From positions 2,724,001 to 2,788,000 of the forward strand of contig NZ_AP024745.1 of assembly GCF_019704555.1 (NCBI RefSeq): 64,000 nt of DNA, given 5' to 3'. The stretch's first letter is position 1. Each line of letters begins with the position of its first letter. Under the pieces are notes generated by a model, which saw only the letters and a program-made list of their open reading frames with translations, ran no database searches and was not told where the DNA came from. The position numbers were made by a program, and so were the translations under genes. This document shows positions 13,293 through 30,065 of this stretch, one piece after another. Source of the stretch: Actinoplanes sp. L3-i22. Its GTDB lineage: Bacteria; Actinomycetota; Actinomycetes; Mycobacteriales; Micromonosporaceae.

Positions 13293-13760
13293 TCAATGCT
13301 CGGACAGTACCGCCACCATGGCGGCGCGGGTGGAGACGTCCAGCTTGGCGAAGATCCGTCGCAGATGGGTGGAGACGGTCCACGGGCTGACCGCGAGCTT
13401 GCCGGCGATCGCGCTGGTGGTGAGCCCCATCGCGACCATGTGCGCCACCTCCCGCTCCCGGGTGGTCAGCCGGGACACGCCCTTGTTGCCCTGCGTGCCG
13501 CGGCGGGTGAGCAGGCACCGCACGCCGTCGATCTCCAGGTCGAGCAGCACCTGCCGGTCCGGCGTGTCCCCGGCCGGCGGCTCCTGGCACTGCCGCAGCA
13601 GATGGGCGCCCTCGGCCAGCCGGCGCACCAGGCGGCGCAGCTCGAACTGGATCTCGGACGGCGCCAGCAGCACGAGCTCGGGACTCGGATCCGCCTCTGG
13701 CCCCGCCTTCCCATCAAGTGTTTCGCCGATCGGATCGTCCGTGGTTTCAACGGCAGTCAT
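13293..13760 (-). CDS. LuxR-type HTH transcriptional regulator
   Basis: The C-terminal 65 residues form a GerE/LuxR helix-turn-helix (SRLTTREREVAHMVAMGLTT, then SAIAGKLAVSPWTVSTHLRR, then IFAKLDVSTRAAMVAVL). The 90-residue N-terminus has no receiver aspartate cluster and is not recognised, so it may be a short sensory or dimerisation region. The start at 13760 (MTAVETTDD) has a GA-rich stretch upstream (GTGAGGGGGT). The frame stays open further upstream, but that part has the composition of non-coding DNA. It is divergent from the rpoN-like gene, with 233 bp between starts. Confidence 0.8.
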   Translation of the reverse strand: MTAVETTDDPIGETLDGKAGPEADPSPELVLLAPSEIQFELRRLVRRLAEGAHLLRQCQEPPAGDTPDRQVLLDLEIDGVRCLLTRRGTQGNKGVSRLTTREREVAHMVAMGLTTSAIAGKLAVSPWTVSTHLRRIFAKLDVSTRAAMVAVLSEH

Positions 13761-13993
13761 CTGGGTATACCCCCTCACCTGGCGAGCCGGATAGGAGCGG
13801 CGGAGCGGGACGGAGCCCGTGCCCGCAGCGTATTCCCGGTACGCCCCAGGGGTGTCGCACGATCGAGCGACCCTTGTCAGCGCTCCCCTCATGTGGGTGC
13901 CCTTGACGGGCGACCTCGTCACGGGCAGCACCGCCGCGGACGCCGCCACGGGTGACTGTCCGGAGTCGTCCGGCGCGCCGAGACTGCCGGTAC

Positions 13994-15307
13994 ATGACCA
14001 CTCTGACGACCACCCTCAGTCCGTCCCTGCATGCCGAGCACCGCGTCACGCACGCCCTGGTCGAGTACTCCGAGCTGCTGATATGTCCGCTGGACGAGAT
14101 CCAGCGGCGGGTCGCGCGGGAGCTGGAGCGCAACCCCGCCCTGGACGCCCCGGACCCGGGAGGGCCCGCGCGCGGCGGCCGGAGCCCGGTGACCGCCGCC
14201 GGCGGGGCCCGTCCGCCCGGCCCGGCAAGTGACCGGTATCTGTCAATGGACGTGGTTGATCCGGGATCGGTCGCCGACGCCGTCGTACTGACCGACGCCG
14301 CCGCGCGCCTCGACGAGCCGGACCGGGCGCTGGCCGCCTGGATCCTCGGCGATCTCGACTCGCGCGGGTTCCTGGAGGGCGGCGCCGCCGGGGTGGCCGA
14401 CCGGCTGGGCCTCCCGGCGGAACGGGTCACCCGGGTCGTCGAGGCGCTGCGCGCGGCCGGCCCGCCCGGGCTGTGCGCCGCCGACGCCGTCGAATGCCTG
14501 CTGCTGCAGCTGGCCCGGTACGAGCGGGCCGGGCAGGCGCCGCCGCTGGCCCGGCGGCTCATCCGCGAGCACCTGGCCGACCTGGGCGGCGACTCGGTCC
14601 GGCGGCTGGCCGCCACGGTCGGCGCCCCGGTGCCGGAGGTGCGGGCGGCGCGGGACTTCATCCGGACCCGGCTGCGGCCGTGGGCGGCCCTCGACGACCC
14701 GGCGCCCGCGGTGACCGTGGCCGCCACCGACCTGGTGGTGCGGTTCGCCGGCGACGGCACCGACGAGCTCGAGGTGGAGATCGTCGGCGATCCGGCGAGC
14801 CGGCTGCGCGTCGACCCGCTCTGGGCCCGGCTGGCCGAGGGGCCGGTGCTGCCCGCGCCGCAACGCCGGACCGTGCGCGAGCACGCCCGGCAGGCCCGGT
14901 CGTTCCTGGCCGCGCTGCAGGAGCGCGCCGACACCCTGCGGCGCATCGCCGGGTACGCCGCCGGGCGACAGCGCCGCTACCTGCGCGAGGGCGCCGCCGC
15001 ACACCTGCCGCTGACCCGGGCCGAGGTGGCCGACGCCCTGAATCTGCACGAGTCCACGGTGAGCCGGGCGGTGAGCGGCAAGCGACTGCGACTGCCGGAC
15101 GGCCGGGTCGTGCCGTTCAGCGCGCTGTTCGGCGCGACCGGGTCGGTGCACACCGTCCTGAAAGCGGTGATCGCCGCCGAGCAGCGCCCGCTCTCCGACG
15201 CCGATCTCGCCGCTGAGCTGCACCGGCGCGGCCATCCGGTGGCCCGCCGCACGGTCGCCAAGTACCGGCGGGAACTGGGCATCCCGGCCCACGGCCGCCG
15301 AAGCTGA
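13994..15307 (+). CDS. rpoN: RNA polymerase sigma-54 factor (RpoN homologue)
   Basis: All sigma-54 regions are recognisable in 437 aa. Region I resembles the activator-interacting domain (SELLICPLDEIQRRVAREL, then ERNPAL) although it is glutamine-poor. The core-binding domain has LAAWILGDLDSRGFLEGG and PPGLCAADAVECLLLQLARY. The DNA-binding HTH has LTRAEVADALNLHESTVSRA, then VSGKRLRLPDGRVV. The RpoN box is ARRTVAKYRR at 417-426, against ARRTVAKYRE in the classical protein. Sigma-54 directs polymerase to -24/-12 promoters and needs an AAA+ activator. A perfect -24/-12 site lies 82 bp downstream and a GAFTGA activator is encoded at 23.3-24.7 kb. The ATG at 13994 is chosen because region I begins there; GTG 13952 is in frame upstream. 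Sigma-54 is generally considered missing from Actinobacteria, which makes this gene unusual. Confidence 0.92.
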   Translation: MTTLTTTLSPSLHAEHRVTHALVEYSELLICPLDEIQRRVARELERNPALDAPDPGGPARGGRSPVTAAGGARPPGPASDRYLSMDVVDPGSVADAVVLTDAAARLDEPDRALAAWILGDLDSRGFLEGGAAGVADRLGLPAERVTRVVEALRAAGPPGLCAADAVECLLLQLARYERAGQAPPLARRLIREHLADLGGDSVRRLAATVGAPVPEVRAARDFIRTRLRPWAALDDPAPAVTVAATDLVVRFAGDGTDELEVEIVGDPASRLRVDPLWARLAEGPVLPAPQRRTVREHARQARSFLAALQERADTLRRIAGYAAGRQRRYLREGAAAHLPLTRAEVADALNLHESTVSRAVSGKRLRLPDGRVVPFSALFGATGSVHTVLKAVIAAEQRPLSDADLAAELHRRGHPVARRTVAKYRRELGIPAHGRRS

Positions 15308-15388
15308 CTTCGCCGGCGGCCGCCGCGGCACGAAGCGCGGTTCGCGTCCCGGCGCCCGCGACCGGCCCGTCACCAGGCCCGCACCGGC

Positions 15389-15404
15389 TGGCACGGAACT
15401 TGCC
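15389..15404 (+). promoter_or_regulatory. Sigma-54 (-24/-12) promoter
   Basis: TGGCACG (15389-15395), 4 nt, TTGCC (15400-15404) matches the sigma-54 consensus TGGCACG-N4-TTGCW at every invariant position, with the GG and GC dinucleotides 10 nt apart. Transcription would start near 15415, giving a 37-nt leader with GAGGAG 7 nt before ATG 15452. A small dyad CGAA-N6-TTCG at 15331-15344 is a possible activator site; no stronger upstream site was obvious. Confidence 0.85.
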
Positions 15405-15451
15405 ACGGAGTGGCGAGAGACATCCACCCCGCACAGGCGAGGAGACCGCCG

Positions 15452-16222
15452 ATGCACAACCTGGACCGCACACTCTTCGAGACCGGTGCGCAGGAGACCG
15501 GTGAGTACGAGTCGGAGCAAGAGGACTTCTTCGGCATCCTCGGATCGATGCTCAAGGGCGAGAGCGCCCCGACGGGCGAGTACGAGTACGGCTACGAGAG
15601 CGAGGACGAGGGGGAGCTCGAGTCGGCCGCCCGGCTGCTGGAGGTTCGTGACGAGGCCGAACTGGACCGCTTCCTCGGAGATCTGTTCAACCGCGCGGTG
15701 GGCGCGGCCAAGAGCGCGGCGGGCGCGGCCCGCAACTTCGCCGGCTCGCCGACCGGGAAGGCGCTCGGCGGCATCGTCAAGAAGGCGACCAAGGAAGCCC
15801 TGCCGGTGATCGGTGGTGGCATCGGTGGCTGGCTGTCGCCGGACTACGCCGGCGCCGGCACCCGGGCCGGCACGGCCATCGGCGACCTGCTCGGGCTGGA
15901 GCTCGAGGGACTGTCGAACGAGGACCGCGAGTTCGAGACCGCGCGCGCCCTGATCCGGTTCGCGCAGGCCGCCTGCCGCAACGCGGCGCAGGCCCCGCCC
16001 GGCGCGCAGCCCCGCGAGGTCGCCCACAAGGCCGCGGTCGCCGCCGCCCGTCAGCACGCTCCCGGCCTGCTGGCGAACGCTCCCGCCACCGCTGGCTCGA
16101 CCACCTCCACCCCCACTGCCGCCAACGGCGGCCGCCCGGCGCAGCCCGGCGCGAAACGATCGGCGGCCCGCTCCGGGCGCTGGATCCGGCAAGGCAACTC
16201 GATCCTGATCCTCGAGAACTGA
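15452..16222 (+). CDS. Unknown acidic/helical protein, paralogue 1 of the sigma-54 operon
   Basis: First gene behind the -24/-12 promoter, 256 aa. The N-terminus is rich in Glu and Tyr (GEYESEQEDFF, GEYEYGYESEDEGELESAA). A Gly/Ala hydrophobic middle follows (ALPVIGGGIGGWLSP), then a helical segment ending EFETARALIRFAQAACRNAA...AARQHAPGLL. A low-complexity linker leads to the C-terminal tag SGRWIRQGNSILIL. The same order of blocks is seen in the next gene. I do not recognise a characterised family; similar Glu-rich proteins with an RW-x-R-x-G-x-x-I tail are known to me only as hypotheticals. There is no signal peptide. GAGGAG at 15439-15444 sets the start. Confidence 0.8.
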   Translation: MHNLDRTLFETGAQETGEYESEQEDFFGILGSMLKGESAPTGEYEYGYESEDEGELESAARLLEVRDEAELDRFLGDLFNRAVGAAKSAAGAARNFAGSPTGKALGGIVKKATKEALPVIGGGIGGWLSPDYAGAGTRAGTAIGDLLGLELEGLSNEDREFETARALIRFAQAACRNAAQAPPGAQPREVAHKAAVAAARQHAPGLLANAPATAGSTTSTPTAANGGRPAQPGAKRSAARSGRWIRQGNSILILEN

Positions 16223-16236
16223 AAGGCGAGAAGACC

Positions 16237-17184
16237 ATGACCACGTACGAGACGAGCAGCGAGTGGGAGACGCCGGAGCTGGAGTTCGGCGAGGCCGAGG
16301 GGGAGTCCCAGTACGAGTCGGAGAGTCAGTCCGAGGGCTTCCTGGGCGGCCTGCTGAGCTCGGTGCTGGGCGGTGAGATGGCCGAGTCGGAGAGCCCGCT
16401 CTCCGAGATCCAGGAGATGGAGGCGGCCAACGCGCTGCTGGAGACGCAGAGCGAGGAGGAGCTGGAGCAGTTCCTGGGCAGCCTGGTCAAGAAGGTCGCC
16501 TCGGGCGTCGGCGGCTTCCTGCGCTCGGGCACCGGCCAGGCGCTGACCGGCGCGCTCAAGAACGTCGCGAAGAAGGCGCTGCCGATGGTCGGCGGGGCGC
16601 TCGGCTCGTTCGTCGCCCCCGGCGTCGGCACCGCGATCGGCTCGAAGCTCGGCGGCCTGGCCTCGAACCTGTTCGAGACCGAGTTCGAGAACATGAGCGA
16701 GCAGGAGGCCGAGTTCGAGGCCGCCCGCCGGTACGTGCGCTTCGCCAGCTCCGCCGCCGCGAACGCCGCCAAGGCCCCGCGCAACGCACCGCCGCAGGCC
16801 GTGGCCCGGGCCGCCGTGGTCACCGCGGCCCGCAAACACGCGCCCGGCCTGGTGCGGGGCACGCCCTACCAGTCCGCCCAGTCCGCCCAGTCGTCGCGGC
16901 AGTCCGGCAGCGGCTCGGCGCGGCGGTCCGGCGGCCAGGGCGGGCAGGGCGGCCAGAGCGGACGGGGCCACGGCGGCCGGCGGCGCTCGACCAGCTCGAC
17001 TAGTTCGGCCTACGGCTACTCGGTGGAGGGCCCGTCCTTCGTCTTCGACGACGGTTACCAGTCCGGCGACGACGGCTACGGCGAGGACCAGGGTTACTAC
17101 GACGAGCCGGTGCGTCGCCGCCGCCGGGCGCAGAGCGGCCGCTGGGTCCGCCGCGGCCACAAGATCATGATTCTCGGGTCCTGA
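16237..17184 (+). CDS. Unknown acidic/helical protein, paralogue 2 of the sigma-54 operon
   Basis: 315 aa with the block order of its upstream neighbour, 14 bp away. A Glu/Ser-rich N-terminus (EFGEAEGESQYESESQSEG) precedes a glycine-rich amphipathic region (GGFLRSGTGQALTGALKNVA, then KKALPMVGGALGSFVAPGVG). The EFEAARRYVRFASSAAANAA...AARKHAPGLV helix follows. A Gly/Arg/Ser-rich linker (GGQGGQGGQSGRGHGGRRR) and an acidic tyrosine-rich patch lead to SGRWVRRGHKIMIL. The shared helix and tail show duplication and divergence. The glycine-zipper-like centre could insert in membranes or self-assemble; that is inference. AAAGGCGAG precedes the start. Confidence 0.8.
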   Translation: MTTYETSSEWETPELEFGEAEGESQYESESQSEGFLGGLLSSVLGGEMAESESPLSEIQEMEAANALLETQSEEELEQFLGSLVKKVASGVGGFLRSGTGQALTGALKNVAKKALPMVGGALGSFVAPGVGTAIGSKLGGLASNLFETEFENMSEQEAEFEAARRYVRFASSAAANAAKAPRNAPPQAVARAAVVTAARKHAPGLVRGTPYQSAQSAQSSRQSGSGSARRSGGQGGQGGQSGRGHGGRRRSTSSTSSAYGYSVEGPSFVFDDGYQSGDDGYGEDQGYYDEPVRRRRRAQSGRWVRRGHKIMILGS

Positions 17185-17186
17185 CC

Positions 17187-18515
17187 ATGAGCGGCATGGC
17201 CATCGCCTCAGGGCTCATCGAACAGGAGGCCCGTGCGCTGCTGACGCGGCTGGCCCGGGTGCGCCCGTTCGCCCTGCACGAGACGATGGTGCCGGCGGCC
17301 GCCCTGGCCCCGGCCGCCCAGGTGCGCATCGAGCGGTTCCTCATCGACGGCCGCGCGGATCTCGGGTGCCAGGTCGTGAACTTCCTGCGGTGGATGCGCG
17401 GACCGGGCCGGCAGGCGCCGGTGCCCGAGAAGCAGCGGCGCCTGACGCTCATCCGGTTGCGTTTCAACGACGTACTGTCGCAATTTGATCTTTTTACCGA
17501 AGTGATCACCCAACGCAGCGAGCACGAGACCGGAGTCTGGCTGTCCGGGCTGGACGTGCTGGCCCGGGACGCGCTCGGCCTGCCCGGCGACTACTTCGAG
17601 CCGCCGCCGGTGATCTGCTACCTGGCCCGCGGGCCGGGCGCGGCGATCCGGCGGGCCCGGACCCGCCTGCCCGGCGGCGACGAGAACCCGGTGGCCATCA
17701 TCCGGGTGCCCCGCGAACGCATGGTCGGCCACGGCATCGGCGCGTCGCTCGTGCACGAGGTCGGGCACCAGGGGGCGGCCCTGCTGGACCTGGTCACGTC
17801 GCTGCGGCCGGCCCTGGCAAGTGCCCGCGACACCGGCCGTGGCCCGCACCGGGCGGCCTGGCCGTGGTTCGAACGCTGGATCTCCGAGGTGGTCGCCGAC
17901 CTCTGGGCGGTGTCCCAGCTGGGCATCGGCGCGCCGCTGGGACTGATCGGCGTGGTCAGCCTGCCCCGCTGGTTCGTCTTCCGGTTCGGCGGCGAGGACC
18001 CGCACCCGGTGCCGTGGATCCGGGTGCTGCTGAGCTGCGCGCTCGGCGACGCGCTCTACCCGGACCCGCAGTGGCGGGCGCTCGCCGAGGGCTGGCGGGC
18101 GATGTATCCGATCGACGGCGTGGAGGCCGGGCAGCGGACGACGCTGGACCAGCTGACCGCCGCGCTGCCCGCCTTCGCCGACGTGCTGCTCGGGCACCGG
18201 CCGGCGGCGCTGCACGGGGCCCGCCTGGGTGACGTCCTGCGCCGCCCGGACCGTGGCGCCGGCGCGCTGCTGCACACCTTCGACACCTGGCGCGCCGATC
18301 CCGGTCTGCTGTACACGACGGCGCCGTCGATCACCTTCGCCGTGCTGGGCCAGGCCCGCGCGGCCGGCCGGCTGACCCCGGAACGCGAGAGCCGGATGGT
18401 CGGTGAGCTGCTCACCCAGTGGGCGCTGCGCAGCACTCTCGACACGTCGGCGATCTGCGCCGACCGCAACCTGACCCCCGCGCTTCCGGCGCGGGTACCC
18501 CTGTCCATCACCTGA
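17187..18515 (+). CDS. Putative zinc-metalloprotease-like protein (HEVGH motif), sigma-54 operon
   Basis: 442 aa, starting 2 bp after the previous stop. IGASLVHEVGHQGAALLDLV contains an HExxH zinc-binding signature, and SEVVADLWAVSQLG about 45 residues later could supply the third ligand, as in gluzincins. The remainder (RWMRGPGRQAPVPEK, WPWFERWISEVVADLW, GWRAMYPIDGVEAGQR) matches no family I can name. There is no signal peptide, so it would act in the cytosol or on its operon partners, for example processing the two acidic proteins. That role is inferred from position only. Confidence 0.7.
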   Translation: MSGMAIASGLIEQEARALLTRLARVRPFALHETMVPAAALAPAAQVRIERFLIDGRADLGCQVVNFLRWMRGPGRQAPVPEKQRRLTLIRLRFNDVLSQFDLFTEVITQRSEHETGVWLSGLDVLARDALGLPGDYFEPPPVICYLARGPGAAIRRARTRLPGGDENPVAIIRVPRERMVGHGIGASLVHEVGHQGAALLDLVTSLRPALASARDTGRGPHRAAWPWFERWISEVVADLWAVSQLGIGAPLGLIGVVSLPRWFVFRFGGEDPHPVPWIRVLLSCALGDALYPDPQWRALAEGWRAMYPIDGVEAGQRTTLDQLTAALPAFADVLLGHRPAALHGARLGDVLRRPDRGAGALLHTFDTWRADPGLLYTTAPSITFAVLGQARAAGRLTPERESRMVGELLTQWALRSTLDTSAICADRNLTPALPARVPLSIT

Positions 18516-18536
18516 CCCGCCGGAGGCGCGGACGCC

Positions 18537-20567
18537 ATGGCGTACCAAGGAACCTACGACTACCACACCATCTGCGAACACAAGCGTCCGGTCGTGGCCG
18601 GCACGGTGGTGAACTTCGCCATCGACCCCGAACCGGACTCCCGCAACTTCACCTTCGAGTGGCAGGTCGAGGGGCCGTTCACCGGCATGGTGCAGCGGTA
18701 CCCGGGCCGCCGGACCTTCGACTGGGACACCGACGGGCTGCGGGCCGGCACGTACCGGATCTCCGCCCGGCTCTCCCCGGTCCTCACCGAGACGAGCTCC
18801 GAGAACGGCGCCGGTGACGGCGTCACCGGCACCTACGGCCTGTCCGGCTCGACCGGCAGCCGCGGCTTCTCGGCCGTGTCGGTGTCCACCCCGCCGACCG
18901 GGACCACGACGCCGCCCGGCGACTCGGAGACCGAGCCGTGGAGCATCCAGCTGACCCCGGCGCCGGCCGGCCAGGACGGGCCGCTGCCGGTCAGCCTGCA
19001 GCGCACCGCCAACGTCGAGACCATCGACCAGGCGCTGTGGGTGATCATCCGGGACCGGACCAACGCGATCGGCTTCCGGCCCTACAAGTCGTTCATCGAC
19101 GACGTGATGGGCGCCGACAAGGTCAGCGCCAACGGCTTCGAGGTCGGCCCGCTGCCGTTCCGTGGCGGCGACGCCTACGCGCTGCTGAAGTTCGCCACCG
19201 ACGCGTTCATCATGCAGGAGGTCGGCGTGCTCGACCCGCTCGGCGTGGTCCGGGCCGGCCTGGTCCAGCCCTCGGCGCTGGCCCGGCTCAACTCCGACCT
19301 GGCCCTGGAGAGCCTCTCGGACCAGCTCGACGACCCCACCCAGGCCGAGGCGCTGCGGACCCAGGAGGAGCGCCGGCTCGGCCGGCCGTTCAACCTCAAC
19401 GAGCTGCGCCGGCTGCGGGACAGCTACTTCGTGGCGCTCAAGGACGAGATCCCGGACCCGCGGGTGCTGCCGTACCTGCGGATCATCCGGGAGCGGCTGG
19501 CCGACATCCCGCTCAAGCCGCCGGGATCGGTGCCGGACCGGTCGTACGGCATCCTGCGGTCGCACCTGACCGCGCCGCTGGCGATCGAGCTGTTCTGGTC
19601 GTACTGGCTGGAAGAGGGCATGCTCGCGCAGACCATGAACGCGGTCCTCGCCCGGTTCGAGAACCGCCGGATCCGCGCCGACGGCCGGCCGGACCCGCTC
19701 ACCCGCTACGACATCGACCCGCTGCGGCCACTGTCCAACATCTTCTGGGGCTTCGCGCAGGACGAGGTGCACCGGCTCACCGTCCGGCGGCGGCATCTCG
19801 AGTACGAGCACGAGTACGGCCTGCCGCTGCACGGTCGCGCGCTGCGGGACGCGCCCCGGCCGGTGGACCGCCGGTCGCGGTTCCTGGAGTCGCTGCACAA
19901 CCTGCTCTACCTGTGCCACGACTACTTCCGCCAGGACGACGACACCACGATCATCGCCGACGGGTTCCCGATCCTCAACGCGCTGCGCGAGACCCACCTG
20001 CTGCTGGCCGAGGGGGCACACAACCAGTTCGGCGACCTGCCGTCGACCGCGCGCTCCGAGATGATGGTCATGCAGTGGCTGCTGGCCCGGCCGGAGATGC
20101 GCGACTTCCTCGGCGGGCGGACCATGGTGCCGTACGAGGAGGCGTGGATGGACCGCGTCGACTCGATGAAGTCCATGCAGGACTGGACGGACGTGAGCAT
20201 CACCCACTTCCGGGACATGGCGGTCTTCGGCGAACAGCTGCTGGTCTCCATCCGGTACGGCAACTGGAGCGTCGAGAACGACCCGCAGACCGCCGCGAAC
20301 TGGGCCCGCTACTGGCGCGCCGAGATCCAGCGGTACGTGCACGCGTACCGGGCCGCGACCAGCGTGGACCTGACCGAGGAGATCGACGCCACCCCGCCGG
20401 CCGTGCTACTGCGCCGGCGCCTGGGTGACGGCGACCGCCCGCAGTTGGACGGCTCGCGCCGCCCGGCCCTGGACGGCTCCCGGCGCCCCGCGCTGCCGAG
20501 CCGGCGGCAAGGCGACCAGATGGCCTCGCGGGTGCGCTCGTCGGCGGGCGAACTGGAGCACGGGTGA
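18537..20567 (+). CDS. Large unknown protein with N-terminal Ig/PKD-like domain, sigma-54 operon
   Basis: 676 aa. Residues about 15-100 look like an Ig/PKD-type beta-sandwich (FTFEWQVEGPFTG, RTFDWDTDGLRAGTYRISAR). A Ser/Thr/Pro linker follows, then a long helical region of unknown type (FRPYKSFIDDVMGADKV, NIFWGFAQDEVHRLTVRRRH, MMVMQWLLARPEMRDFLGGR). The C-terminus has short repeats (LDGSRRPALDGSRRPALPSR). There is no signal peptide or membrane helix. Its last 4 bp overlap the start of the next gene (GTGA), which implies translational coupling. Size and domain plan suggest a structural or scaffold protein of the operon product, but no function can be assigned. Confidence 0.75.
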   Translation: MAYQGTYDYHTICEHKRPVVAGTVVNFAIDPEPDSRNFTFEWQVEGPFTGMVQRYPGRRTFDWDTDGLRAGTYRISARLSPVLTETSSENGAGDGVTGTYGLSGSTGSRGFSAVSVSTPPTGTTTPPGDSETEPWSIQLTPAPAGQDGPLPVSLQRTANVETIDQALWVIIRDRTNAIGFRPYKSFIDDVMGADKVSANGFEVGPLPFRGGDAYALLKFATDAFIMQEVGVLDPLGVVRAGLVQPSALARLNSDLALESLSDQLDDPTQAEALRTQEERRLGRPFNLNELRRLRDSYFVALKDEIPDPRVLPYLRIIRERLADIPLKPPGSVPDRSYGILRSHLTAPLAIELFWSYWLEEGMLAQTMNAVLARFENRRIRADGRPDPLTRYDIDPLRPLSNIFWGFAQDEVHRLTVRRRHLEYEHEYGLPLHGRALRDAPRPVDRRSRFLESLHNLLYLCHDYFRQDDDTTIIADGFPILNALRETHLLLAEGAHNQFGDLPSTARSEMMVMQWLLARPEMRDFLGGRTMVPYEEAWMDRVDSMKSMQDWTDVSITHFRDMAVFGEQLLVSIRYGNWSVENDPQTAANWARYWRAEIQRYVHAYRAATSVDLTEEIDATPPAVLLRRRLGDGDRPQLDGSRRPALDGSRRPALPSRRQGDQMASRVRSSAGELEHG

Positions 20568-21877
20568 ACGTCGTCGACTTCACGTCGGCGCTCTACCTGG
20601 ACCTGCGGCACCCGAGCCGCTGCCTGGCACCCTGGCAGCGGCTCACCACCGGGGTCCCGGCCGCGCTGGCGGAGGCCCCGGCCGTCGCGGCACTGTCGGC
20701 CGGGCTGGCCCGCCTGCTCGGCCGGCCGGCCGCCACTCCGGCCCGGTCCAGCCTGCATGCGCTGGTGGATGTGGTGGGGGCGCTCGGGGACGGGGCCACG
20801 GTCTGGTGTGACTCGGGCGCGTATCCGATCGCCGGGTGGGCGGCGCGGGCGGCTGGGCACGTGCCGCGCCGATTCGCCCACCACGACCCGACCGACCTGG
20901 CCCGGCAGCTTGCCGACCTTGCCCGGTCGGCCCCCGGTCGGCCGGCGGCCCTCAACCAGCCGGCGGCCCCCGACCAGCCGGCGGCCCTCAACCAGCCGCC
21001 GGACCCCGACCGGCCGGCGGCCTCCAACCAGCCGCTGGCCGCCGGCCTCGCCCGGCCCGGGGCCCCCGACCAGCCGCTGGCTGACGACCTTGCCTGGCCG
21101 TGGGGCGCCGGCCTCGCTGACCCTGCCCAGTCGTTGGCCGTCGGCCTCCGTCGGCAGCCCGCCGCCGGTGGCGGCCGGCCGCTTGTGCTGTGCGACGGCT
21201 ACTGTCCCGGCTGCGGGCGGGTCGCGCCGATCGACGAATACCTGCGGGTGGTCCGCCAGGCCGGGGGCCTGGTGATCGTCGACGACACCCAGGCGGTCGG
21301 CGTACTCGGCCGGCCCGGCGGCGCCGGCACCCCCGCCTGGCTGGGCATTTCCGGGCCCGGCCTGGTGACGGTGGCGTCGCTGGCCAAAGGCTTGGGCGTG
21401 CCGATGGCGGTGGTGGGCGGCGACCCGCACGTCATCGCCCGGATCCGCGCCCGGGGCCCGGCCCGGCAGCACGGCAGCGCGCCGTCGGCGGCCGATCTGG
21501 CGGCCACGGCGTACGCCCTGAAGTGCAATGCCGCCGAGGGCGACCGCCGCCGGGAACGGCTGACGACCTCGGTGCGCCGCCTGCGCTCGACGCTGGCCGC
21601 TCGGGGCATCCGGCTCACCGGCGGTCTCTTCCCGGTGCAGTCCACCCCGGCGGGATCCCCGGCGGCCGCCGCGGCGCTCACCTCGGCGCTGCTCAGACGC
21701 GGTGTCCGGGCCGTCGCGCACCGACCGCAGTGCCGCCCCGGCACAGCCGCGGTCAGCCTGCTGATCACCGCGGCCCACACCACCGCGGACATCGACCGCG
21801 CCGCCACCGCCCTCGCCGCCGAACTACCCGCAGTCCGTAACGGACACAGCGGCCTCCTGGCGGGGGTCCGCTCATGA
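20564..21877 (+). CDS. Alpha-oxoamine synthase-like PLP enzyme (BioF/KBL family) with repeat insertion
   Basis: 437 aa, GTG start coupled to the gene before. Fold-type I PLP elements are present: the pyridine aspartate in GLVIVDDTQAVGVLG, the PLP lysine in TVASLAKGLGVP, and QHGSAPSAADLAATAYAL where the second subunit's phosphate loop lies. The overall match is to 8-amino-7-oxononanoate synthase or 2-amino-3-ketobutyrate ligase types, which join an amino acid to an acyl-CoA. Residues about 128-200 are a Pro/Ala/Asn/Asp/Gln repeat tract (PAALNQ, PAAPDQ, PAALNQ, PPDPDR, PAASNQ) that interrupts the core between strands and is absent from usual family members. Substrates are unknown. Confidence 0.75.
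   Translation: MNVVDFTSALYLDLRHPSRCLAPWQRLTTGVPAALAEAPAVAALSAGLARLLGRPAATPARSSLHALVDVVGALGDGATVWCDSGAYPIAGWAARAAGHVPRRFAHHDPTDLARQLADLARSAPGRPAALNQPAAPDQPAALNQPPDPDRPAASNQPLAAGLARPGAPDQPLADDLAWPWGAGLADPAQSLAVGLRRQPAAGGGRPLVLCDGYCPGCGRVAPIDEYLRVVRQAGGLVIVDDTQAVGVLGRPGGAGTPAWLGISGPGLVTVASLAKGLGVPMAVVGGDPHVIARIRARGPARQHGSAPSAADLAATAYALKCNAAEGDRRRERLTTSVRRLRSTLAARGIRLTGGLFPVQSTPAGSPAAAAALTSALLRRGVRAVAHRPQCRPGTAAVSLLITAAHTTADIDRAATALAAELPAVRNGHSGLLAGVRS
20938..21080. repeat. In-frame 18-bp repeat tract inside the PLP enzyme gene
   Basis: An 18-bp unit of the type CCGGCGGCCCTCAACCAG encodes P-A-A-L-N-Q variants several times in succession. Because the unit is a multiple of three, the tract can lengthen or shorten without a frameshift. 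Confidence 0.7.
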
Positions 21878-21996
21878 ACACCGACCGAGCGGTGCACTCC
21901 GGCGCGGGCACCGATCAGGCCGCCGTCGCCCTTGCCGCTGAACTGCCCGCAGTCCGTAACGGACTCAGCGGCCTCCTGGCGGGAGCACGCTCATGA
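21874..21996 (+). CDS. 40-aa ORF created by tandem duplication of the upstream gene end (doubtful gene)
   Basis: An ATG overlapping the preceding stop (ATGA) opens a 40-aa frame that ends in a TGA overlapping the next gene's ATG (again ATGA). Its C-terminus, ALAAELPAVRNGLSGLLAGARS when read in two halves, nearly copies the C-terminus of the PLP enzyme upstream. The DNA at 21919-21998 repeats 21800-21879 with few changes, at a spacing of 119 bp. It may be only a translational bridge between the two flanking genes. I regard expression as possible and function as unlikely. Confidence 0.35.
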   Translation: MNTDRAVHSGAGTDQAAVALAAELPAVRNGLSGLLAGARS

Positions 21997-23295
21997 ACGC
22001 CGGTCGGGAGGCGCTGCGGCGCCGGGTGTGCGCCGCGGTCGACGCGCACGCCCGCGAGCTGATCGCCTTCTCCCATGAGTTGCACGACCACCCGGAGACG
22101 GCCTACCGGGAGCATCGCGCGGCGGCGGCGCTGGCCGACCGGCTGCGCCGCGGCGGCCTGGCCGTCACCGCGCCGGCCTACCGGCTGCCCACGGCGGTGG
22201 CCGGGCACGCCGGCTCGCACGGGCCCCGGGTCGTGATCTGCTGCGAATACGACGCGCTGCCCGGCCTGGGTCACGCGTGCGGTCACAACGTGGTCGCCGC
22301 CGCCGGCCTCGGCGCGGGTCTGGCACTCGCGCCACTGGCCGCCGCCATCGGTGGACGGATCACCGTGCTGGGCACCCCGGCCGAGGAGGGCGGCGGCGGC
22401 AAGATCCTGATGGCCGGCCGCGGCGCGTTCGACGACGCCGCAGCCGCGATGCTGGTGCACCCCGGCCCGTACGAGACGGTCCGGCCACACATCAGCGCGA
22501 TGACCGGCCTGCAGGCGGTCCTGCTCGGCCGCCCCGCGCACGCGAGCATGTTTCCCGAGCTCGGCGTCAACGCCCTCGACGCGCTGGTGCTGGGCTATCT
22601 CGGCGTATCCGCGCTGCGTCAGCACCTGAGCGGCACCGAGCGGGTGCACGGCGTGATCCGCGACGGCGGCCGCACGCCCAGTGTCGTACCGTCCCGCGCC
22701 TCGGCGGTATTCCTGGCCCGGGCCGCCACGATCGAGCAGGCCCACGCGCTGCGGCAGCGGGTGATCGCCTGCCTGGAGGGCGGCGCGCACGCCGTCGGCG
22801 CCCGGCTGGCCGTACGCACGCTATGGCCCGAGTACCGGGAGATGTGGCACAACCTCCCACTGGCCGCCGCGTTCACCGCCAACCTGCACCGGCTCGGCCG
22901 CTCACCGCTCCCGCCGGAACAGGTCCCGGCCAGCCGGTCCGGCTCGACCGACCTCGGCGACGTCAGCCAGTTGGTGCCGGCGGTGCACCCCAAACTCGCC
23001 ATCAGCCCTCCGAACATCGCACAGCACACCCCCGAGTTCGCCCGCTGGGCAATCGCGCCGACAGCCGACCGAGCCGTACTCGACGGCGCCAAGGCCCTGG
23101 CCCTGACCGCCGTCGACATCTGGCTCGACGCACGCCTGCGCGCAGCCATGCACACCGCCTTCGGCCCAGAGCCGGCAAGCGCTCCCGACCCGGGTCCGGT
23201 CGGGGCTTTCGGCCCGGGGCTGGTCAGCGCTTTCGGCCCGGGGCCGGTCGACGACTTCATGCCGGGGCCGGTCGGCGTCTTCGCGTCGGCGTCGG

Positions 23296-24720
<1,425 letters not shown>

Positions 24721-24981
24721 GCGTCCGCGTACATGCGTCGCACATTCTGACGACTGGTGGGGGTGACACGAACGGGTTACACCGGATGAGAGACCGGCGG
24801 CGCGGGCCGCTCGGCGCTCGGTGCCGGGGCGATGTCTCCCGGGCCGGCGCCGATGGGGGTCCACGCGGGCCGGCCGGTCCAGGCGAGGGGATGCCCTCGT
24901 GACCGGCCCTGGTGGAGGGCGGTCGGCCGGAGCGCTCCAGGGCGCCTCGAACCCGACGACCAACCAACCGGAGCAATGATC

Positions 24982-26229
24982 ATGAATATTTTCGTCACCG
25001 AACCCCGAGATGTCACCTATAGGGAGGTGAAAGCAGCCGAGGAGATCGAGGCCGACTCGTTCGGCTCCGGCCCGCTGCCGGCGGACGTCATCAACGACTC
25101 CGGCAACGACCTGAGTGAGCGCGAGGTGAGCAAGATCGCGACCCGGCTGGACGATCCGGGGCTGGCGCCCCGGGTCCAGCTGCTGCTGAGCCGGGAGCGC
25201 ATCTTCGGCACGTTCCTGACCAGCCTCGTCGCGGCGTTCCCCACCGCCGGCAAACGCAGCGTCGAGGAGAGCGCGGACTATGTGCTCGACCAGCTGGAGA
25301 ACAGCGAACTGCTGGAGGAACTGGACAACAAGGTGTCCTACGCGGCGCCGGTCATTCCGGGCTCGCCCTGCGACGTCGGCGACATCGAACGGGGCAACCT
25401 GAAGGTCCCGCAGATCAGCACCGGCATCGACCGGGCGCTGATCGACGCCGCGGCGGACCTGGCCGACATCACCACGGTCGGCGACGCCATGGGCGTCTTC
25501 GCGGCTCGCACGGCGCTGGTCGACCGGTGGGCGGCCGGCGACTTCCGCTTCGCCGGCAAGGAGGTCAACCGATTCCTCTACTGCTTCCTGCGTGATCGGA
25601 CGGACCTGACCGACGACACGCGGCACCGCGTGCAGGCCAGAGTCTTCGGCACACCGGGCGTGCCGGCGGGCACCGACGTCAACACGGCGTTCCCGGTGGC
25701 TTTCCAGCGGTTGCTGTCCGCCCTGGTGCGTTTCGACCAGGACAGCCGCACCAGCCAGTCCGGCAAGGAGCCGAGCCGGGCGCAGGCCAACATCGCGGCC
25801 GAGGAGGTTCGTTACAACCTCGATCAGGCGGTGACCGGGGTGACCGAACTCGAGATCAGCGACCTGCGCGCCGAGCTGACCCGGGCGCTGTTCGTGCTCG
25901 AGGACGACGAGGTGATCCAACAGGTCGCCGGCGGCGACCCGGACGGCATCTGGGCGGTGGTGAACCGGCTGCTCGACCGGAGCGGCTCCACCTCCCGTGA
26001 CCTGGTCGCGCAGTTCGCGGCGCTGAAGGCCCGCCGGGACATCTTCGCCTTCCTCCGGTACGAGCCGGGCGGCGGCGGGCCGGGGGAGAACGCGGCCTTC
26101 GCCGCCGCGGTCGAGGCCGCCGTGACGCTGGAGACCATCGAGTCGGTCCCACGCCCCGCGCAGCTCGCCGGGGCGATGAACGGCCAGTCCGATTACACGG
26201 TCGACCGGCTCACCACGATGAGCCACTGA
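24982..26229 (+). CDS. Unknown soluble protein divergent from the sigma-54 activator
   Basis: 415 aa, start ATG 24982 with CCGGAG about 8 nt upstream (ATG 24976 is too close to it). The protein is acidic and predicted helical (YVLDQLENSELLEELDNKVS, RFAGKEVNRFLYCFLRDR, LRAELTRALFVLEDDEVI). It lacks signal peptide, membrane segments and any catalytic motif I recognise. It is divergently transcribed from the activator, with 261 bp between starts that holds a TGCGTCGCA palindrome (24732-24740). I saw no -24/-12 box there. Location suggests it belongs to the sigma-54 system, but no function can be given. Confidence 0.7.
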   Translation: MNIFVTEPRDVTYREVKAAEEIEADSFGSGPLPADVINDSGNDLSEREVSKIATRLDDPGLAPRVQLLLSRERIFGTFLTSLVAAFPTAGKRSVEESADYVLDQLENSELLEELDNKVSYAAPVIPGSPCDVGDIERGNLKVPQISTGIDRALIDAAADLADITTVGDAMGVFAARTALVDRWAAGDFRFAGKEVNRFLYCFLRDRTDLTDDTRHRVQARVFGTPGVPAGTDVNTAFPVAFQRLLSALVRFDQDSRTSQSGKEPSRAQANIAAEEVRYNLDQAVTGVTELEISDLRAELTRALFVLEDDEVIQQVAGGDPDGIWAVVNRLLDRSGSTSRDLVAQFAALKARRDIFAFLRYEPGGGGPGENAAFAAAVEAAVTLETIESVPRPAQLAGAMNGQSDYTVDRLTTMSH

Positions 26230-28407: not shown

Positions 28408-28720
28408 TGCCGTAACGGCCGCGCCGCCCCGGGTCGCGCCGCGCTGGGCTGCGCCGGGCCGGGTCGCGCCGCGCTGCGCCGGGCCGGGTCGCGCCGCGCC
28501 GCGCCGGGCCGCGCCGCGCCGCGCCGCGCCGGGCCGCGCCGCGCCGCGCCGCGCCGGGCCGGGCCGGGCCGGGCCGCGCCGGGCCGCGCCGGGCCGCGGT
28601 GCGCCGGGTCGCGTCGGGCTGGGCCGGGCCGGGCCGCGGTGCGCCGGGTCGCGCCGGGCTGGGCCGGGCCGGGCTGCGGTGCGCCGGGTCGCGCCGGGCT
28701 GGGCCGGGCTGGGCAGGTTG
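28408..28720. repeat. GC-only pentamer-based low-complexity array
   Basis: About 300 bp built almost only from GCCGG, GCCGC, GCGCC and GGTCG-type pentamers, with 10-bp periodicity in places. Open frames through it are compositional artefacts. It lies directly upstream of the second SAM-IV riboswitch. The rest of 28268-28790 holds no gene. Confidence 0.85.
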
Positions 28721-29582: not shown

Positions 29583-30065
29583 TGCGCCGAGCCGCGTCGG
29601 GCTGCGCCGAGCCGGGCTGCGCCGCGCCGAGCCGGGCTGCGCCGCGCCGCGCCGGGCTGCGCCGCGCCGCGCCGGGCTGCGCCGCGCCGCGCCGGGCTGC
29701 GCCGGGCTGCGCCGGGCTGCGCCGGGCTGCGCCGGGCTGCGCCGGGCTGCGCCGGGCTGCGCCGGGCTGCGCCGGGCTGCGCCGGGCTGCGCCGGGCTGC
29801 GCCGGGCTGCGCCGGGCTGCGCCGGGCTGCGCCGGGCTGCGCCGGGCTGCGCCGGGCTGCGCCGGGCTGCGCCGGGCTGCGCCGGGCTGCGCCGGGCTGC
29901 GCCGGGCCGGGCTGGGCTGGGCCGCGCCGGGCTCGGCCGGGCTGCGCCGCGCCGGGCTCGGCCGGGCTGCGCCGCGCCGGGCTGGGCCGGGCTGGGCTGG
30001 GCCGGGCTGGGCTGGGCTGGGCCGGGCTGCGCTGCGCCGGGCTGGTCCGGCTGGGTCGCACCGCG
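29583..30065. repeat. Decamer tandem array (GCCGGGCTGC)n
   Basis: From 29691 to 29900 the decamer GCCGGGCTGC is repeated 21 times without error. On the left it is flanked by alternating GCCGCGCCGC/GCCGGGCTGC units and on the right by degenerate GCCGGGCTGG variants. The period matches roughly one DNA turn. No coding function is likely. Together with the array at 28408 it brackets the acetyltransferase gene. Confidence 0.95.

What the first reader, a model, noticed from the sequence alone, without database searches (positions are those of the whole stretch)
13994..26229. Sigma-54 regulon in an actinobacterial genome
Seen: an RpoN homologue (437 aa) with region I, core-binding, HESTVSRA helix-turn-helix and an ARRTVAKYRR box; a -24/-12 promoter 82 bp beyond its stop; six plus-strand genes behind that promoter; and a convergent activator with an intact GAFTGA loop. 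Known: sigma-54 needs an AAA+ activator and is textbook-absent from Actinobacteria. Inference: this is a complete, transferable expression module (sigma factor, promoter, activator) driving an undescribed operon of Glu-rich paralogues, a metalloprotease-like protein, a large Ig-like protein, a PLP synthase and an M20D amidohydrolase.
Basis: partly seen in the sequence, partly recalled or inferred. Interest (0 to 1): 0.95.

Follow-up and report, generated by a model that had tools for sequence, protein, structure and literature searches.

The report
Self-contained sigma-54 switch in actinobacteria
An actinobacterium carries, within about 12 kilobases, a sigma-54 gene, an activator gene and an operon behind a sigma-54-type promoter with two palindromes that the activator likely binds, a set predicted to switch on that one operon, which matters because sigma-54 was published as effectively missing from this group.

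Summary
Window 13994-15307 encodes a sigma-54 factor (Pfam DNA-binding 101 bits, core-binding 78 bits), with a TGGCAC-N5-TTGC promoter 82 bp past its stop, six plus-strand genes, and a convergent activator with an intact GAFTGA loop. The 12.0-Mb genome has one RpoN and one strong activator.
New here: two CGAA-N6-TTCG palindromes lie between rpoN and the promoter; such a pair occurs nowhere else in the genome. The cassette recurs in 11 of 11 actinomycete genomes found with this RpoN. In two surveys, close relatives of the operon's HExxH protein occur exactly where rpoN occurs: 9 of 354 family and 3 of 394 class genomes. Ensifer, Rhizobium and Paraburkholderia carry operon, activator, promoter and palindromes without rpoN in the locus. 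Where the activator's recognition helix is deleted or altered, the palindromes are gone or different.
Best reading: a self-contained sigma-54 switch dedicated to one operon, bringing its own sigma factor to hosts that mostly lack one. DNA binding and transcription are predicted, not shown. What the operon makes is unknown.

The parts
13994..15307 (+). rpoN (sigma-54), 437 aa; the only PF04552 match in the 12.0-Mb genome
15299..15312 (.). distal palindrome CGAAGCTGACTTCG (predicted activator site 1), overlapping the rpoN stop codon
15331..15344 (.). proximal palindrome CGAAGCGCGGTTCG (predicted activator site 2), starting 58 bp before the TGG of the -24 element
15389..15403 (+). -24/-12 promoter TGGCACGGAACTTGC
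15452..16222 (+). Glu-rich protein A (256 aa), with a Gly-rich segment and a C-terminal GRWxRxGxxIxI-type tag
16237..17184 (+). Glu-rich protein B (315 aa), paralogue of A
17187..18515 (+). HExxH protein (442 aa), metalloprotease-like; HEVGH and E234 invariant in the 10 of 11 carriers aligned
18537..20567 (+). 676-aa protein: poorly modelled N-terminal beta domain (about residues 10-81) and a conserved helical C-terminal half
20564..21877 (+). PLP enzyme of the aminotransferase class I/II (BioF/Kbl-like) family
21993..23378 (+). M20D amidohydrolase (TIGR01891 170.6 bits, cut-off 153.75)
   Evidence: present in 3 of 11 carriers
23296..24720 (-). enhancer-binding protein (AAA+ activator), GAFTGA intact, C-terminal Fis-like helix-turn-helix; convergent with the operon; start codon not certain
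13293..13949 (-). LuxR-type regulator divergent from rpoN; among the loci searched a relative (68% over 124 aa) lies at the same place in G492 only
   Evidence: LuxR label by eye
24832..26229 (+). protein of unknown family divergent from the activator (start may be 24976); relatives beside the activator in G492 and G573

Best explanation
This is a self-contained sigma-54 switch: an rpoN gene, an adjacent six-gene operon with a -24/-12 promoter and two upstream CGAA-N6-TTCG palindromes, and a convergent enhancer-binding-protein gene lie together, and the activator is predicted to bind the palindromes and would, by ATP-driven contact, let sigma-54 RNA polymerase open that one promoter. Shown from sequence: the parts, their linkage in 11 of 11 actinomycete carriers, exact co-occurrence in two surveys, and a match between activator helix and palindrome. 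Inferred: binding, transcription, and that no other promoter in the genome is used. Inferred: the operon is an old sigma-54-dependent unit, which in Pseudomonadota would borrow the host's sigma-54; in actinomycetes, which mostly lack sigma-54, the unit persists only where it carries its own rpoN. Inferred and weak: the operon makes Glu-rich, membrane-active proteins that its HExxH protease matures, with the PLP enzyme and amidohydrolases making or clearing a small molecule.
For: One PF04552 protein and one strong PF00158 protein (188 bits; the other six at most 33) in the genome, about 9 kb apart. All 11 carriers hold Glu-rich gene(s), HExxH protein, large protein and activator beside rpoN. 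Co-occurrence: rpoN at 86-110 bits in 9 of 354 family genomes, and the same 9 hold the close HExxH protein (649-755 bits); 3 of 394 class genomes, the same 3. Palindromes: 18 exact copies in 14 x 170 bp upstream of promoters against 11 in 446.6 kb elsewhere, 0.06 expected; the pair occurs once in the own genome, here. The three proteobacterial loci, scanned after the motif was defined, hold 5 exact copies and one one-mismatch copy at the predicted place. Activator helix LGVTxRALQ-like in the 10 loci with CGAA palindromes, altered in G968 (different palindrome, twice), deleted in G038, G043, G583 (none). RpoN and activator similarities correlate, rho 0.80, 0 of 2000 permutations. GAFTGA in 10 and GSFTGA in 1 of 11 activators.
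Against: Region I scores below the Pfam cut-off (18.9 against 23.8) and TIGR02395 below its equivalog cut-off. TGGCAC-N5-TTGC occurs 8 times in the genome, 13 in the reversed-pattern control, so the promoter alone is not enriched; the palindrome pair occurs once, the reversed control twice on each strand, so what counts is the place, not the number. The palindrome was found by eye on the actinomycete set. G038, G043 and G583 are close relatives, so helix loss with palindrome loss is probably one event. Paraburkholderia's promoter is weak (TGGTATGACTCGTGC). RpoN-HExxH correlation is only 0.49 (32 of 2000 permutations). The large surveys scored only 4-10 first-look candidates per genome, so a weak RpoN could be missed. 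No transcription data. Operon function is unsupported by structure: the HExxH model has no PDB match below E 0.43.
Confidence: 0.87

Rival explanations
1. The RpoN is a degenerate relic without function, as a 2025 survey concluded for the few actinomycete RpoN proteins it saw; the promoter is read by another sigma factor or not at all.
For: Region I below the Pfam cut-off. [quoted passage not shown]
Against: RpoN-box residues R418, R419, T420, K423, R425 invariant in 11 of 11 and the DNA-binding helix kept; many close homologues carry PF00309; GAFTGA or GSFTGA kept in 11 of 11 activators; promoters in 14 of 14 and palindromes in 10 of 14 loci. A relic would not keep its partners.
Confidence: 0.06
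2. The sigma factor serves a wider regulon; this operon is only its best-marked target.
For: Seven other TGGCAC-N5-TTGC sites exist in the genome, and relaxed promoters were not searched genome-wide.
Against: Those sites do not exceed the control (8 against 13); there is only one strong activator and one palindrome pair.
Confidence: 0.15
3. Contamination or misassembly put foreign DNA in the window.
For: Similar operons occur on proteobacterial megaplasmids.
Against: The genome is one 12.0-Mb contig and the locus has 73-76% GC, like the rest of the window (70-75%); ten other actinomycete genomes carry it; the proteobacterial loci lack rpoN, and the RpoN clade (100/99 support) excludes the five proteobacterial sequences sampled.
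Confidence: 0.01
4. The operon belongs to the accessory or effector genes of a contractile injection system, and the switch controls that weapon.
For: Distant clusters of the same HExxH family lie beside injection-system genes in 2 of 8 loci examined: L121 (Pvc16_N and an AAA protein) and L124 (tail sheath). Three of 4 carriers tested have a Pvc16 gene elsewhere in the genome.
Against: G968 carries the cassette but no Pvc16 match; I saw no injection-system gene among the predicted genes next to the sigma-54 cassettes (by eye and not searched with models).
Confidence: 0.15

Closest known systems
Canonical NtrC/NifA-type sigma-54 regulation (recalled)
   Same: -24/-12 promoter, paired upstream activator sites, AAA+ activator with GAFTGA
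   Different: there one sigma-54 usually serves many activators and promoters; here one factor, one activator and one marked promoter, all adjacent
The same operon and activator on Ensifer adhaerens, Rhizobium sp. CCGE532 and Paraburkholderia phymatum plasmids (L082-L084)
   Same: Glu-rich genes, HExxH protein, large protein, convergent activator, promoter and CGAA palindromes; PLP enzyme in L082 and L083
   Different: no rpoN found in the 29-kb loci
rpoN close to a sigma-54-dependent regulator on a conjugative Latilactobacillus curvatus plasmid (L119)
   Same: sigma-54 and a sigma-54-dependent regulator travel together
   Different: its RpoN lies on the other side of the 100/99 branch; the rest of that plasmid was not examined
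RpoN of Actinomycetota families f40, f41, f62, f85 (names not given)
   Same: same phylum, sigma-54
   Different: score 171-197 bits and lie on the other side of a 100/99 branch

Membership tests
sigma-54 (RpoN) | DNA-binding domain PF04552 with HTH and RpoN box | tested here: met
   101 bits, cut-off 22.8; HESTVSRA and ARRTVAKYR present
sigma-54 (RpoN) | core-binding domain PF04963 | tested here: met
   78 bits, cut-off 22.9
sigma-54 (RpoN) | region I (activator-interacting domain) PF00309 | tested here: inconclusive
   18.9 bits, E 0.0014, 34 of 46 positions, below cut-off 23.8; many close homologues carry PF00309
sigma-54 (RpoN) | binds core polymerase and needs an activator to open promoters | not testable with these tools
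   needs in vitro transcription
bacterial enhancer-binding protein | sigma-54 interaction AAA+ domain PF00158 with Walker motifs | tested here: met
   184.7 bits, cut-off 20.2; GESGTGKE and DEVGEL
bacterial enhancer-binding protein | GAFTGA loop | tested here: met
   own GAFTGA; 10 of 11 GAFTGA, 1 GSFTGA
bacterial enhancer-binding protein | C-terminal Fis-type DNA-binding domain | tested here: inconclusive
   HTH_8 19.5 bits, cut-off 22.0; helix conserved across phyla
sigma-54 promoter | TGGCAC-N5-TTGC (GG-N10-GC) | tested here: met
   15389-15403; an equivalent at the same place in 11 of 11 carriers
M48-like metalloprotease | HExxH fold related to solved M48 proteins | tested here: inconclusive

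The most novel reading that the evidence does not exclude
A portable, orthogonal sigma-54 transcription cassette: one operon with its own sigma factor, activator, enhancer and promoter spreads among bacteria that lost sigma-54, so that in a 12-Mb genome an entire class of RNA polymerase holoenzyme serves a single promoter; in Pseudomonadota the same operon uses the same enhancer code but dispenses with its private sigma factor.
Probability: 0.55. Interest if true: 0.92.

Novelty: new variant of a known kind. Interest (0 to 1): 0.85.

Why it matters
A 2025 survey concluded that Actinomycetota effectively lack functional sigma-54 and proposed that high GC content makes sigma-54 promoters hard to tell from random sequence (PMC12316311 section 14). 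An intact set in DNA of 70-76% GC makes that proposal directly testable. It also shows what may be the smallest sigma-54 regulon, with a promoter and enhancer whose code is shared with rhizobia and a Paraburkholderia, and it offers a ready orthogonal expression cassette for actinomycetes. It points to an operon family for which I found no description and whose role is open.

Tried and rejected
The PDB did not identify the HExxH protein, the large protein or the Glu-rich proteins by sequence (best E 0.02, none, and 0.1) or the HExxH model by fold. The large protein's model was too poor to search (pLDDT 49.7). TRI4_N matches in Glu-rich relatives (29.6 bits against a cut-off of 27.8 in P0123, below it in P0124 and P0121) and the lantibiotic matches below cut-off are taken as chance. 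Phages: no match to the HExxH protein; viral contigs: none for it and one distant RpoN, L131, not followed. The single genome-contig scan with the own RpoN found four distant RpoN of other phyla; records near the own genome may be left out there. A sigma-70-type promoter scan of 13700-15500 found nothing, so how rpoN itself is transcribed is open.

A first RpoN tree and its rerun misread rows: the fetched loci of minus-strand matches are not turned, so deep actinobacterial rows L016, L019, L020, L022, L023 and L025 were wrong reading frames, and L027. One search reads all 15 in frame and is the one I rely on. In one search I also tested the 11 carriers alone as a clade (rejected), which was the wrong group because their homologues lie among them.

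Dropped before counts: G566, G684 (family) and G1107 (class) pass the PF04552 cut-off by at most 2 bits on short stretches, G400 and G427 (phylum) are fragmentary at 24-27 bits, and G090, G390, G403, G418, G505, G883, G984, G1048 fall below it; I did not count these as carriers and did not examine them further (a 15.8-kb stretch around G090's match was fetched and held none of the cassette proteins). Distant HExxH relatives (70-139 bits) in 9 family and 10 class genomes, none with a PF04552 match, were counted as a different family. For alignments some carriers were left out because the gene ran over a fetch border: G770 in the HExxH and large-protein alignments, G492 in the activator alignment.

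The contig-length matches (four lengths shared between the HExxH and RpoN lists, the listed 120 of 5586 and 120 of 1290 hits) are only a hint and are not used.

Literature, seen as search listings unless said otherwise: (8 of 8 papers listed; 15 of 31; 14 of 14; 3 of 4; 1 of 1; 1 of 1) showed no report of a sigma-54 operon in actinomycetes; (8 of 24) none of this operon; others (9 of 9; 10 of 16) served the Paraburkholderia and injection-system questions. Passages seen: PMC3162934, PMC12316311 (and section 14 whole), PMC5979394, PMC5748707, PMC2875401. The Paraburkholderia passages did not settle whether their copy is rpoN-dependent; supplements were not available.
Full report
WHAT IS THERE. 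The window lies at 2,724,001-2,788,000 of a genome held as one contig of 12,014,766 bases. RpoN passes Pfam for its DNA-binding and core-binding domains; region I is recognisable but scores 18.9 bits against a cut-off of 23.8. NCBIfam's equivalog threshold is not reached (196 of 277 bits). The activator scores 184.7 bits for PF00158.

ONE FACTOR, ONE ACTIVATOR. In the whole genome there is one PF04552 match and seven PF00158 matches, of which the window's has 188 bits and the other six 25-33 bits. The same PF00158 search rings in all 14 control genomes, also in archaea, so weak matches mean little; I take the six as other AAA proteins without having examined them.

THE MISSING ELEMENT: PAIRED PALINDROMES. 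Between rpoN and the promoter lie CGAAGCTGACTTCG (15299-15312, overlapping the rpoN stop) and CGAAGCGCGGTTCG (15331-15344). The pattern CGAA-N6-TTCG N5-35 CGAA-N6-TTCG occurs once in the genome, here; the reversed control pattern gives 2 per strand, so a pair somewhere is no surprise, a pair at this place is. Across 14 loci (11 actinomycete, 3 proteobacterial) there are 18 exact copies in the 170 bp upstream of the promoters and 11 in the other 446,601 bases; 0.06 were expected. Eight loci have two exact copies, two (G492, L084) have one exact and one with a single mismatch, four (G968, G038, G043, G583) have none. The proximal copy begins 57-59 bp before the TGG in own, G492, G586, Ensifer, Rhizobium and Paraburkholderia; in G770, G573, G057 and G1025 it begins 45, 45, 35 and 99 bp before it, which are steps close to whole helix turns. 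I found the motif by eye in the actinomycete set, so its score there is biased; the three proteobacterial loci were scanned afterwards and serve as the test: 5 exact copies in 510 bp, where the background rate gives 0.013.

ENHANCER AND ACTIVATOR CHANGE TOGETHER. The C-terminal helix of the activator reads LGVTxRALQ or close to it in the ten loci with CGAA palindromes, from both phyla. In G968 it reads LGVSVRTLQVWQ, and its promoter is preceded by a different 16-base palindrome, GCGCAGCCGGCTGCGC, twice (seen in the sequence printed). In G038, G043 and G583 the helix is missing, and so are the palindromes. These three are close relatives, so they count as one event.

DISTRIBUTION. PF04552 over the cut-off: 4 of 100 relatives, the own genome being a fifth row there or one of them as the tally counts it; the four are own, G038, G043 and G057. 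In the family 11 of 354, of which 9 score 86-110 bits. In the class 4 of 394, of which 3 are real (own, G1025, G968, 81-103 bits). In the phylum 18 of 396: 13 at 171-197 bits in genomes of 1.8-4.0 Mb, two at 127-131 bits, the own genome, and two fragments. So 'absent' should read 'rare'. The close HExxH protein (649-755 bits) occurs in exactly the same 9 family genomes, and (661-753 bits) in exactly the same 3 class genomes; distant relatives (70-139 bits) occur in 9 and 10 further genomes, none with rpoN. The paired surveys have the same sizes and handles, so I take them as the same draws. They scored only 4-10 first-look candidates per genome.

ANATOMY OF THE CASSETTE. Constant in 11 of 11: rpoN, at least one Glu-rich gene, the HExxH protein, the large protein, the activator. 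The activator is convergent with the operon in 10 of 11; in G586 it lies upstream of rpoN on the same strand. rpoN precedes the Glu-rich genes on the same strand in 10 of 11; in G770 it is divergent. The PLP enzyme is found in 7 of 11, a PF04909 amidohydrolase in 8 of 11 and in Ensifer and Paraburkholderia but not in the window, the M20D enzyme in 3 of 11. In G038, G043 and G583 a -24/-12 element also lies upstream of rpoN itself, and in G968 upstream of the HExxH-rpoN pair, which predicts positive autoregulation there.

PROTEOBACTERIAL COUNTERPARTS. A plasmid search with the HExxH protein gave 4 records: two Rhizobium, one Ensifer, one Paraburkholderia. The three loci fetched (one of the two Rhizobium) carry Glu-rich genes, the HExxH and large proteins and a convergent activator at 48-54% identity to the nearest carrier, GAFTGA intact; promoter and palindromes as above; no RpoN match in about 29 kb. 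That their hosts have rpoN elsewhere is general knowledge, not tested here.

ORIGIN OF THE SIGMA FACTOR. In a tree of 53 RpoN the 11 carriers and 18 homologues chosen from the hits (18 of the 120 listed, 1290 found) form one side of a 100/99 branch, with an Anaerolineae sequence among the outermost. The 15 other actinobacterial RpoN taken from the phylum survey and the five proteobacterial ones lie on the other side; joining the carriers to the Proteobacteria is rejected (p-AU 7e-106). So this RpoN was not taken from the sampled Proteobacteria. The homologues were picked because they match, so the tree says nothing about how the clade is spread. Named members include Actinoplanes sp. NPDC020271 (80% identical), three Streptomyces, a Rhodococcus and a Nocardiopsis. 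RpoN and activator similarities correlate (rho 0.80, 0 of 2000 permutations); RpoN with the HExxH protein 0.49 (32 of 2000), with the large protein 0.42 (26 of 2000).

HOW IT PROBABLY WORKS. By established sigma-54 biology (recalled), holoenzyme would sit silent on 15389-15403 until the activator, bound as oligomers on the two palindromes and looped over, drives open-complex formation through GAFTGA. The activator's N-terminal part looks by eye like a degenerate receiver domain without a conserved phosphorylation site (alignment; not tested), so the signal is unknown. Confidence in the switch is high, in exclusivity moderate, in the operon's product low.

FUNCTION OF THE OPERON. No Pfam or NCBIfam match at E 0.01 for the Glu-rich, HExxH and large proteins of the window. 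The HExxH protein is mostly helical (pLDDT 80.6); E. coli BepA is a weak structural neighbour. Distant clusters with HExxH relatives and acidic neighbours, at least one (L123) with an M20 peptidase, sit beside contractile-injection genes in 2 of 8 loci examined (8 of the 19 such genomes fetched). That is a lead; G968 has the cassette but no Pvc16 match.

KNOWN AND NEW. RpoN-like proteins in a few actinomycetes have been seen and dismissed (PMC12316311), and databases label some of them sigma-54. I found no report of a working set with activator, promoter and enhancer (search listings). New here: the complete cassette, its exact co-occurrence, the enhancer code and its match with the activator across two phyla, and the version without a linked sigma factor in rhizobia.

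Noticed in passing
L036, L038, L040, L053, L054, L058, L066, L069 (RpoN genes); P0326: Eight of 11 carrier RpoN proteins have a CxxC...C(xx)C zinc-ribbon-like insert after region I (one of them, G968, incomplete); the own, G492 and G573 proteins lack it. An Anaerolineae homologue has it too.
   Followed up: partly
L036, L040, L053 upstream of rpoN; L069 upstream of the HExxH gene: Extra -24/-12 elements that would place rpoN under its own control in four carriers.
   Followed up: partly
L121:407-3355, L124:459-2288: Distant HExxH-family clusters without rpoN lie beside contractile injection system genes (Pvc16_N, AAA protein, tail sheath).
   Followed up: partly
L013-L025: RpoN of ordinary score in 13 Actinomycetota genomes of 1.8-4.0 Mb, so the phylum does not lack sigma-54.
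   Followed up: partly
28417-28714 and 29611-30032: Two GC-rich tandem arrays (10-25 base units, up to 42 copies) on either side of an acetyltransferase-like ORF (label by eye).
   Followed up: no
L119: A conjugative Latilactobacillus curvatus plasmid carries rpoN one gene away from a sigma-54-dependent regulator, another travelling pair.
   Followed up: no
P0264 and P0289: Two different RpoN homologues have the same longest-contig length (8476 bases), perhaps two rpoN genes on one contig.
   Followed up: no
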